Part shown: positions 4,350 to 40,904 of the stretch, one piece after another | How positions within the stretch are numbered: the stretch's first letter is position 1 | Layout of the letters: every line of letters begins with the position of its first letter | DNA from: Candidatus Woesearchaeota archaeon | Lineage (GTDB): Archaea; Nanobdellota; Nanobdellia; Woesearchaeales; SKIA01 | DNA: 41,622 nucleotides | Reading direction: 5' to 3' | NCBI GenBank assembly: GCA_007117065.1 | Contig: SKHI01000012.1 | Span: 1-41,622, forward strand | Made by a program: the position numbers and the translations under genes | The notes under the pieces: generated by a model | The model's database searches: none | Told to the model about the DNA's origin: nothing | The model's input: the letters and a program-made list of their open reading frames with translations, nothing else

Positions 4350-4424
4350 GCCCCGTTGGTGTAGTCCGGCCAATCATTCCGCCCTTTCGAGGCGGAGACT
4401 CGGGTTCGAATCCCGGACGGGGCA
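4350..4424 (+). tRNA. tRNA-Glu (UUC)
   Basis: GCCCCGT acceptor, anticodon stem CCGCC/GGCGG with loop CTTTCGA, T-arm CGGGTTCGAATCCCG. Confidence 0.96.
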
Positions 4425-4467
4425 TCGTTTTATTATCTTCCTCATACAAATATTCTTGTCAGCGTTA
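4411..4467. repeat. att-like direct repeat copy 1 (tRNA-Glu 3' end plus 43 nt)
   Basis: TCCCGGACGGGGCATCGTTTTATTATCTTCCTCATACAAATATTCTTGTCAGCGTTA is identical to 5942-5998. Confidence 0.97.
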
Positions 4468-5115
4468 CTTTTTACACTCAAACAACAGAGCATGTACGAA
4501 GTCGTTTTTTCCGCTGAGTTCATGAATTCTTGTTTCAAGAAATCCTGCATTGTACAAATTTTCTTGATAAACACCTATGGGATTGTGGAAGTCACGTATT
4601 CCAACATCTCGAAGTTTACCGTCTTCGTCTTCAAGTAAGACTGTAAATGGGATGTCTTTTCTCTCATATTTAAACTGTTCATCAAAAACAACCTTATAGC
4701 CTGGTAGATCTTCTCGATGTCGTGTCTGCGGGTTTGTTATAGTAAAGTAAAATGTCCCTTGGTTTCGTAGTGAATACTGGATGTTTTTGAATGCAGCCTT
4801 AATCTGCTCAGCCTTTAATTCTGTAAATACATAGTTTGCTGCGATTACATCTATTCCTAAGTATTGTTCCATAACTCCAGAGTCAGTAACATCGCCCAGC
4901 ACTACATTGTTACCTCTTTTTTGAGCAAATTCAACCATGGATCTATTTATGTCGATTCCTCGGGAGTTATCATATCTATTTAGCATATCTCCAGATCCGC
5001 ACCCTATCTCTAGTAGTGAGTTTGGAGAGCGCGCTGCAATTAGTCCATGCATGGCTTCGTTGTCTTGTTCTCGTTGGTTTTCTGGTTGTTTGTAGAATAA
5101 TTCTGCGTTTTCCAT
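4465..5115 (-). CDS. class I SAM-dependent methyltransferase
   Basis: LLEIGCGSGDMLNRYDNSRGIDINRSMVEFAQKRG...GDVTD motif I/II signature. Start placed at ATG 5115 (MENAELFYKQ), just downstream of a TATA element. Confidence 0.85.
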   Translation of the reverse strand: MENAELFYKQPENQREQDNEAMHGLIAARSPNSLLEIGCGSGDMLNRYDNSRGIDINRSMVEFAQKRGNNVVLGDVTDSGVMEQYLGIDVIAANYVFTELKAEQIKAAFKNIQYSLRNQGTFYFTITNPQTRHREDLPGYKVVFDEQFKYERKDIPFTVLLEDEDGKLRDVGIRDFHNPIGVYQENLYNAGFLETRIHELSGKNDFVHALLFECKK

Positions 5116-5116
5116 A

Positions 5117-5128
5117 CTACTATAGTAG
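5117..5128. promoter_or_regulatory. 12-bp palindrome CTACTATAGTAG in the divergent methyltransferase/TrmB promoter
   Basis: Perfect palindrome between the methyltransferase start and the shared AT-rich TATA region (about 5136-5148). A related half-site ACTACTAT overlaps the regulator start (about 5164-5172). Confidence 0.5.
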
Positions 5129-5161
5129 AGTAACAAAATATAATAAACAGTTGTCACATAT

Positions 5162-5911
5162 ATGACTACTATGATACAAGACGCTCTTGAGGCATATGGG
5201 CTCAATCAAAATGAGATCAAAGTATTTCTAGCGCTTGTAGACATCGGAGGAGGCTTTGCAAGAGATCTTATCGATTCTACAAAACTACACAAAAACATCG
5301 TGTACGATAATCTCTACAAACTCCAAGAAAAAGGTCTTGTATCCGAAATAATCATTGAATCCAAGAAATACTTCCAATGCGAAAGCCCTCAAGCGATTCA
5401 AGAGTTCATCACACAAAAAAAGAAAAAATTTAATACATACGATCAAGCGATTCAAGAGTTACAAGAAGACATACAGCAGAAGAAACAACTACCGCAAAAA
5501 ACATCTACTCGGATGTACACAGGAATTAGTGGAATCAAGCAAATATTCAGCGAAGAGATAGAAATCGGAGAAGATTATTTGCATATAGGAGCGCCAAAAG
5601 AATCAGTGGAGCTATTGGGCGTGCATTTCTGGAAGAATTTTATACGGAAACAAGAAGAGAAGAATATTAGAGGAAAAATCTTATTTAACGAATCATTGAG
5701 AACGTACGCAAATTCAATACATCACGAACTCAACAACATAAGATTCCTTGAAGAACATTTTGAGCCACTGACAGAAATCTGTATTTATGCAAACCAAGTA
5801 GCAATAATTGTATGGTCACAAGAACCAATAGGGACAGTAATTGAAAACAAAGATGTTGCAGATAGCTACAAGAAATATTTTGAAATTCTCTGGAATCAAG
5901 CAAGAAAATAA
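5162..5911 (+). CDS. TrmB family transcriptional regulator (249 aa)
   Basis: IQDALEAYGLNQNEIKVFLALVDIGGGFARDLIDSTKLHKNIVYDNLYKLQEKGLVSEI is a TrmB-type wHTH; C-terminal sensor-like domain. Confidence 0.85.
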   Translation: MTTMIQDALEAYGLNQNEIKVFLALVDIGGGFARDLIDSTKLHKNIVYDNLYKLQEKGLVSEIIIESKKYFQCESPQAIQEFITQKKKKFNTYDQAIQELQEDIQQKKQLPQKTSTRMYTGISGIKQIFSEEIEIGEDYLHIGAPKESVELLGVHFWKNFIRKQEEKNIRGKILFNESLRTYANSIHHELNNIRFLEEHFEPLTEICIYANQVAIIVWSQEPIGTVIENKDVADSYKKYFEILWNQARK

Positions 5912-5941
5912 TACATTCTCCGAGTTCAATTTATATACAAG

Positions 5942-5998
5942 TCCCGGACGGGGCATCGTTTTATTATCTTCCTCATACAAATATTCTTGTCAGCGTTA
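5942..5998. repeat. att-like direct repeat copy 2 (truncated tRNA-Glu 3' end)
   Basis: 57/57 identity to 4411-4467; the 5' part of the tRNA is absent here. Confidence 0.97.
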
Positions 5999-6221
5999 TT
6001 TGTGTTTATAATGCATTGTTTCATGAGAGCACATCCACTCATTAAGGGAGTCATAACCCCGACCATGCAGTGAATCAGCCACCTATTCTCGTTTCTCATT
6101 GCGTATATGATGCCTTCGACAGTACTATGGTGCAACGTTGGAACGGTTTGGTAGCAATGCTACCTTTCGCAGTCAATAATTTTTTCGTAAGATTCTTATA
6201 GGCACATTCTTCTCTTATGAG

Positions 6222-16241: not shown

Positions 16242-16315
16242 ATAATAGAGTGTACTGTTCTTATTTTTATACTCATATGCTTACGTATTTAAAGAGGAAA
16301 CGCTATTCGCATAAT

Positions 16316-17092
16316 ATGAAATCGTTGATTGCTGAAATGACTCTTCGTGGAATGTCTGCACATACAAAACAAGCGTATGTCCGCTATGTAGAAATGTTTT
16401 TTCGTTTTAGCTCAGTTCCTGAAAAAGACGTGAGTCGTGATGATATCAAGTTGTTTCTTGCGCACTTACTTGGCGAAGGCAAAAGTGCTTCTACCGTGCA
16501 TCTTGCTCGTTCAGCTCTCTTATTTTACTTTAATGATGTTCTTGAGCGCGGCTTTACCAATATTAAAGCTCCAAAACTTGCTAAAAAGCTTCCTGTGTAC
16601 CTCACTCAAGAAGAAGTAGCCCGCCTCATATCATCTGCGTCTTCAGAACAAAGCCAGTTACTTATCACCCTCTTATACGCTTGTGGTCTGCGCGTTTCTG
16701 AGGTGGTAGCACTTCGCTACGAAGATATTCGCTCTGATGGCACACTTGTGGTCCGACAGGGCAAAGGCGCAAAAGATCGCGTTACTGTAGTTCCACAGAG
16801 TATTCATGAAAAGCTATCAGGTTCTGGATATATATTTGGCTCGGGGTCTATGACTACACGCAACGTTCAAGGCATTGTGCATCGTACTGCCCAGAAAGCA
16901 GGTATTACAAAGCACGTTACTCCTCACGTATTGCGTCATAGTTTTGCCACCCATCTCTTAGAACAAGGTGAGAATATTCGTGTTATTCAGGAGCTGTTAG
17001 GCCACAGTAATTTACAGACTACCCAGATATACACTCATGTATCAAGTGATGTTATTCGCGGCGTCAAAAGTCCGTTTAAAGAGAACAAGTAA
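16316..17092 (+). CDS. xerA: XerA-type tyrosine recombinase
   Basis: ACGLRVSEVVAL (R), THVTPHVLRHSFATHLLEQG-like TKHVTPHVLRHSFATHLLEQG (HxxR), LGHSNLQTTQIYTHV (H, Y). Start 16316 about 26 nt after a TATA-like TATTTAAAG. Confidence 0.92.
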   Translation: MKSLIAEMTLRGMSAHTKQAYVRYVEMFFRFSSVPEKDVSRDDIKLFLAHLLGEGKSASTVHLARSALLFYFNDVLERGFTNIKAPKLAKKLPVYLTQEEVARLISSASSEQSQLLITLLYACGLRVSEVVALRYEDIRSDGTLVVRQGKGAKDRVTVVPQSIHEKLSGSGYIFGSGSMTTRNVQGIVHRTAQKAGITKHVTPHVLRHSFATHLLEQGENIRVIQELLGHSNLQTTQIYTHVSSDVIRGVKSPFKENK

Positions 17093-40506: not shown

Positions 40507-40604
40507 TAATAAATAATTTAGACTAAAGAGCCTAGATTTTGAAAAATGAGAGTCTTGCTATATTGTGTCCAGTCTTGAGTTTACAAGCGAGCTTTGAAGA
40601 TTGA

Positions 40605-40904
40605 CTATATTAACTCCTCATGCAAAAAGATATGTTGTGAAGCTACATCTAAACATGTGCGAGTGAACGTGTTTTTTGTTGCTGTTTTGATCTCTGTTAA
40701 AGTAAAATCTTCCAATGGTTTTCTCGCAACAGACACGAGTAAATCTATCTCTTTCTCTAACTATCCGCTTTTATGGATGTTTTCAGCAAGTCTTGTTCCG
40801 ATTTTGTTAACAAGCTGAATGGCTCTAATTTGATTATTGGCAAAGTCGCTATCGCTGTGTAAAATCCCTACAGGGATGGTATCTTCGATAGTTTGCGTTT
40901 GCAT
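40605..40904 (-). pseudogene. small gene interrupted by one in-frame TAG
   Basis: MQTQTIEDTIPVGILHSDSDFANNQIRAIQLVNKIGTRLAENIHKSG*LEKEIDLLVSVARKPLEDFTLTEIKTATKNTFTRTCLDVASQHIFLHEELI*; TAG at 40763-40761; TATA about 26 nt upstream. Confidence 0.55.

What the first reader, a model, noticed from the sequence alone, without database searches (positions are those of the whole stretch)
4350..5998. Minimal tRNA-Glu-bounded cassette: 57-bp att-like repeat enclosing only a methyltransferase and a TrmB regulator
Seen directly: 4411-4467 (last 14 nt of tRNA-Glu plus 43 nt downstream) is repeated perfectly at 5942-5998, offset 1531 bp. The left side keeps the whole tRNA and the right side only its 3' end. 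Tyrosine-recombinase elements that target tRNA 3' ends leave this arrangement. The interior holds only two divergent genes and no integrase. It may be a trans-mobilised mini-element, a remnant of a larger one, or a segmental duplication. A XerA-type recombinase lies about 10 kb away, but nothing links it to this site.
Basis: partly seen in the sequence, partly recalled or inferred. Interest (0 to 1): 0.78.

Follow-up and report, generated by a model that had tools for sequence, protein, structure and literature searches.

The report
Two-gene cassette beside archaeal tRNA-Glu
A 1.5-kb stretch holding just a methyltransferase gene and its own regulator sits between an intact tRNA-Glu gene and a copy of that gene's tail, as if a tiny DNA circle without its own integrase had slotted into a site that larger mobile elements use in related archaea.

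Summary
4411-4467 recurs perfectly at 5942-5998 (59/60 over 60 bp) and nowhere else in the 907-kb genome. It is the last 14 nt of an intact tRNA-Glu(TTC) plus 43 nt beyond. The interior is full: a methyltransferase whose stop codon lies inside the left repeat, a 46-bp divergent promoter, and a TrmB regulator ending 30 bp before the right repeat.

Integration is supported, not proven. Neither cargo gene was found in the two sister species. Two relatives carry integrase-bearing elements of about 10-11 kb at tRNA-Glu with matching tail repeats. None of 12 other TrmB loci is bracketed by repeats. A sister species has a similar integrase-less cassette (1.84 kb, one gene) at its other tRNA-Glu, with only a 14-bp repeat. 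The TrmB operator overlaps its own start, is conserved across the phylum and occurs once in this genome, so the cassette is a self-contained divergon.

No empty site, circle or cognate integrase could be shown. The XerA 10 kb away is the ordinary chromosomal one. Verdict: a new variant of a known kind, a minimal tRNA-integrated cassette needing an integrase in trans. Tandem tRNA tail copies in relatives are noted separately.

The parts
4350..4424 (+). tRNA-Glu(TTC), intact; target gene
   Evidence: ARAGORN and Rfam RF00005
4411..4470 (+). left repeat (attL-like): last 14 nt of the tRNA plus 46 nt; perfect over 4411-4467
   Evidence: the repeat finder, whole-genome search
4465..5115 (-). class I SAM-dependent methyltransferase, 216 aa; stop codon inside the left repeat
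   Evidence: ORF and Pfam PF08242/PF08241; no close relative in GTDB contigs
5117..5128 (.). 12-bp perfect palindrome CTACTATAGTAG just upstream of the methyltransferase start; possible second operator
   Evidence: read from the sequence; function inferred
5150..5169 (+). operator GTTGTCA-N6-TGACTAC overlapping the TrmB start codon
   Evidence: conserved in 8 homologous start regions, single copy in genome, 0.09 expected by chance in window at up to 3 mismatches
5162..5911 (+). TrmB-type transcriptional regulator, 249 aa
   Evidence: Pfam PF01978; homologues up to 42% identical in the phylum
5942..6001 (+). right repeat (attR-like): displaced tRNA 3' end plus 46 nt; perfect over 5942-5998
   Evidence: the repeat finder, whole-genome search

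Best explanation
A 1531-bp circular cassette, with the methyltransferase and TrmB genes diverging from one promoter and converging on a single 57-60 bp att site, recombined into the 3' part of tRNA-Glu(TTC). Integration kept the tRNA whole on the left and left a displaced tRNA tail on the right (attL/attR of a T-arm-type tRNA integration). The cassette has no recombinase, so a tyrosine recombinase of another element must have acted in trans. In the cell the TrmB protein most likely represses its own gene, and probably the methyltransferase, through the operator that overlaps its start codon. Shown: repeat, intact tRNA, gene content, conserved operator, no match for either gene in the sister species, integrase-bearing elements at tRNA-Glu in relatives. 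Inferred: the circle, the recombination itself, the helper integrase, the regulation.
For: Intact tRNA plus displaced 3' end in direct orientation, 59/60 identical. Repeat length lies in the 40-60 bp range given for archaeal att sites (PMC8371274). Neither gene found in sister species G001 and G002. The genes fill the interior and the methyltransferase stop lies in the repeat, as expected of a complete small circle. Integrase-bearing elements with tail repeats at tRNA-Glu in G043 (11.1 kb) and G036 (9.9 kb), and an integrase next to tRNA-Glu in G029. Similar elements at tRNA-Phe in G007 and tRNA-Leu in G044. None of 12 other TrmB loci is bracketed by repeats. A second integrase-less cassette at tRNA-Glu(CTC) in G002.
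Against: No empty site, circle junction or second location of the cassette is available. No integrase known to act on tRNA-Glu exists in this genome. att 25-mer absent from viral and GTDB contigs. Composition is only mildly unusual (GC 6.5th percentile, tetranucleotides ordinary). The G002 parallel rests on a 14-bp repeat. Short tail duplications without genes are common in relatives, so a tRNA tail copy alone is weaker evidence in this group than elsewhere.
Confidence: 0.66

Rival explanations
1. Remnant: a larger integrase-bearing element integrated at tRNA-Glu and lost its integrase and other genes by internal deletion, leaving its two end genes.
For: Larger integrase-bearing elements sit at tRNA-Glu in relatives.
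Against: The methyltransferase stop is inside the left repeat, where pNOB8-type integrases would lie, and the two genes share an intact 46-bp promoter with a conserved operator, so a deletion can only have removed DNA between TrmB and the right repeat. Both genes are full length and no integrase scrap is seen inside.
Confidence: 0.17
2. Duplication without a recombinase: a 60-bp piece containing the tRNA tail was copied 1.5 kb downstream by replication slippage or template switching, or by the process that makes short tail copies beside tRNA genes in relatives; the genes were already there or came by ordinary horizontal transfer.
For: In relatives tRNA genes are often followed by short copies of their 3' ends 50-180 bp on.
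Against: Those copies are spaced 50-180 bp, mostly stop near the end of the tRNA and sit in hairpins; here the repeat runs 46 nt past the tRNA, the right junction has no hairpin, and the genes in between were not found in the sister species.
Confidence: 0.12
3. Assembly effect: an unintegrated 1531-bp circle sharing 57 bp with the chromosome was threaded into the contig by the assembler.
For: The genome is a 51-contig draft and the repeat is short enough to be an ambiguous node for small k. In G002 a contig ends exactly at the tRNA-Glu 3' end.
Against: The two copies differ at position 58. No reads are at hand to test it; the biology (an att-bearing circle) would be much the same.
Confidence: 0.05

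Closest known systems
Archaeal integrative elements at tRNA genes with SSV-type or pNOB8-type tyrosine integrases (review PMC8371274)
   Same: Direct repeat made of a tRNA 3' end, intact tRNA on one side, att length 40-60 bp
   Different: No integrase, no replication or transfer genes, 1.5 kb instead of the 7-11 kb seen in relatives here
1.8-kb insertion at tRNA-Thr of Caldiarchaeum subterraneum (PMC3293823)
   Different: That one encodes a putative DNA recombinase and the fragment is the tRNA 5' part; here there is no recombinase and the fragment is the 3' part
tRNA gene fragments left by integrated elements in Thermococcaceae (PMC9897764)
   Same: Partial tRNA copies marking the far end of integrated DNA in archaea
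   Different: Those elements are about 9 to 23 kb
Integron gene cassettes and CALINs, also known in archaea (PMC9668308)
   Same: One or two genes per circle, recombinase supplied in trans
   Different: No attC-type hairpin at the right junction, no IntI found, anchored in a tRNA gene

Membership tests
tRNA-integrated element (tyrosine recombinase) | Direct repeat containing the tRNA 3' end, intact tRNA at one border, fragment at the other | tested here: met
tRNA-integrated element (tyrosine recombinase) | att identity of a length known from archaea | tested here: met
   57-60 bp against 40-60 bp typical (PMC8371274)
tRNA-integrated element (tyrosine recombinase) | Own integrase gene | tested here: not met
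   Only methyltransferase and TrmB inside; no PF16795 in genome, PF00589 only at 16598-17044 and on C19. So it is not filed as an autonomous member, only as an integrase-less variant
tRNA-integrated element (tyrosine recombinase) | Cargo absent from close relatives | tested here: met
   methyltransferase and TrmB without a match in G001, G002 at the thresholds used; only species-level relatives were available
tRNA-integrated element (tyrosine recombinase) | Empty site or excised circle | not testable with these tools
   sister contigs end at the tRNA, gene order differs, no reads
Integron cassette | attC-like hairpin at the recombination site | tested here: not met
   right junction folds no better than shuffles, z -0.63
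Integron cassette | IntI integrase | tested here: inconclusive
   two XerA-like recombinases; both score below the integron integrase cut-off TIGR02249
Insertion sequence or transposon | Terminal inverted repeats, transposase, short target duplication | tested here: not met
   no terminal inverted repeats, no transposase in the interior, repeat of 57 bp
Element using XerA/dif | att resembles the host dif site | not tested
   dif of this genome was not located

The most novel reading that the evidence does not exclude
In this genus tRNA 3' ends work as anchors of a cassette-exchange system: one- or two-gene circles without a recombinase are inserted beside tRNA genes by a XerA-like host or guest recombinase (for instance the AT-rich orphan on C19), and the hairpin-bearing tandem tRNA tail copies of relatives are gene-less units of the same system.
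Probability: 0.07. Interest if true: 0.9.

Novelty: new variant of a known kind. Interest (0 to 1): 0.47.

Why it matters
If integration is confirmed, this would be a very small tRNA-bounded gene cassette and would show that a single regulator-effector pair can travel without its own integrase, a route for gene gain in very small archaeal genomes. The site also offers a clean test (empty site, circle junction) of trans-mobilisation by tyrosine integrases in an uncultured lineage.

Tried and rejected
Empty-site search in sister species: not decidable, because tRNA-Glu contigs end right after the tRNA and gene order differs. att 25-mer in viral and GTDB contigs: none (records of the window's own genome may be left out there). 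Methyltransferase and TrmB in viral contigs: none. Methyltransferase in the GTDB contig collection: none close. XerA as the cassette's own recombinase: not supported, since orthologues are conserved in sisters without the cassette genes. Transposon with terminal inverted repeats: none present. TrmB pairs as generally repeat-bounded cassettes: rejected, 0 of 12. Integron attC at the right junction: no hairpin. Composition as evidence of foreign origin: weak. Solved-structure relatives of either protein by sequence: none. Known RNA family for the short tail copies: none above cut-off other than tRNA.

Full report
OBSERVATION. The repeat is real: 4411-4467 equals 5942-5998, 59/60 over 60 bp, offset 1531 bp. 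The whole 907-kb, 51-contig genome (97% complete; the window is contig C23) holds only these two copies. The left copy completes tRNA-Glu(TTC). The right copy starts just after the T-loop and has no tRNA 5' part. The window carries an archaeal 16S end. Of 37 tRNA genes in this genome, only this one has a tail repeat within the stretches searched; a reversed-query control gave none.

ANATOMY. Between the repeats lie a class I methyltransferase (4465-5115, minus strand; PF08242/PF08241) and a TrmB-type regulator (5162-5911, plus strand; PF01978). They diverge from a 46-bp spacer. The methyltransferase stop codon is the last three bases of the perfect repeat, and TrmB ends 30 bp before the right copy. 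By these coordinates about 95% of the 1471 bp between the repeats is coding. No recombinase, transfer or replication gene is present.

THE REGULATOR BRINGS ITS OWN SWITCH. Aligning the TrmB start region with seven homologues from other families shows a block GTTGTCA-N6/7-TGACTAC that overlaps the start codon, next to a conserved TATA-like stretch, while the sequence further upstream varies. The block occurs once in the whole genome; 0.09 matches are expected in the window at up to 3 mismatches. The gene next door to these homologues differs from genome to genome; in G311 it too reads as a methyltransferase by its motif. I infer autoregulation, probably including the divergent gene. None of 12 other TrmB loci is bracketed by direct repeats of 15 bp or more within 5 kb, so the bracket is special to this locus.

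DISTRIBUTION OF THE CARGO. Neither gene has a match in the two species of the same genus at the thresholds used (E 1e-3 for the methyltransferase; E 1e-15 for TrmB). The methyltransferase has only remote relatives among 99 genomes (best 27% identity) and no close one in the GTDB contig collection. TrmB relatives are abundant in the phylum but at best 42% identical. GC of the interior is 36.5% against 40.3% for the sampled genome, the 6.5th percentile; tetranucleotide composition is not unusual.

THE SITE IS A TARGET IN THIS ORDER. G043 carries an 11.1-kb stretch from tRNA-Glu(TTC) to a 28-bp copy of its 3' end, with an SSV-type integrase (PF16795) whose frame overlaps the tRNA, an AAA/CHC2 protein and restriction-modification genes; phosphoesterase and inositol-phosphatase family genes lie beside that tRNA as they do in the window, though the similarity is weak. 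G036 has a 9.9-kb stretch with a PF00589 integrase beginning 41 bp after tRNA-Glu, a short 3'-end copy, and a second integrase beyond it. G029 has an integrase within 600 bp of tRNA-Glu and further on a large protein matching a terminase profile; its second repeat was not found. G007 tRNA-Phe (8.7 kb) and G044 tRNA-Leu (7.0 kb) show PF16795 elements. So the anatomy seen in the window is, with an integrase, the signature of integrated elements in its relatives.

A SECOND MINI-CASSETTE IN THE GENUS. In G002, tRNA-Glu(CTC) is followed by one gene (541 aa, cysteine-rich, HEFSH motif) and then CCCGGACGGGGCAT, 1844 bp on. The gene has no match in G000 or G001 and only a remote partial match elsewhere among 60 genomes. 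The repeat is short: by my estimate one chance hit of this kind in the whole survey cannot be excluded, so this is support, not proof.

MECHANISM. Best reading (0.66): a 1.5-kb circle with one att site recombined at the T-arm/3' part of tRNA-Glu, with the recombinase supplied in trans. A remnant of a larger element (0.17) is constrained: the methyltransferase stop inside the repeat and the intact shared promoter leave only the interval between TrmB and the right repeat as a place where genes can have been lost. A recombinase-free duplication (0.12) does not explain a repeat running 43-46 nt past the tRNA around genes not found in the sister species. An assembly effect (0.05) cannot be tested without reads.

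WHICH RECOMBINASE. The genome has two XerA-like proteins and no PF16795 integrase. The one in the window (16250-17092) passes the NCBIfam XerA_Arch cut-off and has about 65% identical orthologues in G001 and G002: it is the chromosomal XerA. The other (C19:270-1076) has 31% GC and is 34-37% identical to these XerA proteins; no closer match was seen in the sister-species stretches compared. Its target is unknown. Neither is tied to tRNA-Glu.

LITERATURE. Archaeal att sites are usually 40-60 bp in several groups, and three integration sub-sites in tRNAs are recognised (PMC8371274). A 1.8-kb insertion at tRNA-Thr of Caldiarchaeum with a tRNA fragment was explained by element integration, and the same paper links such events to tRNA introns (PMC3293823). 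tRNA fragments from elements of about 9-23 kb are documented in archaea (PMC9897764). From these I take the phenomenon as known; what differs here is the size and the lack of an integrase.

CAVEATS. The tRNA survey covers about 180 tRNAs from chosen stretches, not whole genomes, and uses exact 13-base seeds. All key genomes are drafts.

Noticed in passing
L238 (G002 tRNA-Gly, copies at +51, +100, +149), L217, L219, L229, L232, L236, L237, L243, L184, L188, L191, L194, L049, L137: In relatives many tRNA genes are followed 50-180 bp on by extra copies of their own 3' end, sometimes in tandem, each preceded by a hairpin; about 17 of roughly 180 tRNAs, none in the window's genome. The tRNA-Gly units are nearly alike in G001 and G002, which hints at conservation. 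No Rfam family other than tRNA matches.
   Followed up: partly
L105, L106, L107, L108, L110, L115, L116, L118, L124, L125: About ten tRNA-Glu genes of the order have an insertion, probably an intron, in the T-loop between GGTTCRAA and TCCCGG, exactly where the window repeat begins. This fits the published idea that tRNA introns and element integration are linked (PMC3293823).
   Followed up: partly
L099:270-1076 (G000 contig C19): A second XerA-like recombinase, 268 aa, 31% GC against 40% for the genome, at a contig end; no close match in the compared stretches of the sister species.
   Followed up: partly
window 40564-40671 (-): A decayed scrap of a tyrosine recombinase (36 residues, 50% identical to the C19 protein) in a long non-coding stretch at the end of the window.
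   Followed up: no
L139-L146 and window 5150-5169: A TrmB subfamily with a start-codon operator conserved across families but with a different neighbouring gene in each genome.
   Followed up: partly
L044 (G002:C68) end, L043 (G001:C29) end, L009 (G005:C81): Draft contigs of relatives end 0, 113 and about 9 bp past the tRNA-Glu match, as if the downstream side branches in the assembly.
   Followed up: no
genomes G000 versus G001, G002: TrmB-like genes: at least nine matches in the window's genome at E 1e-15 and none in the two sister species.
   Followed up: no
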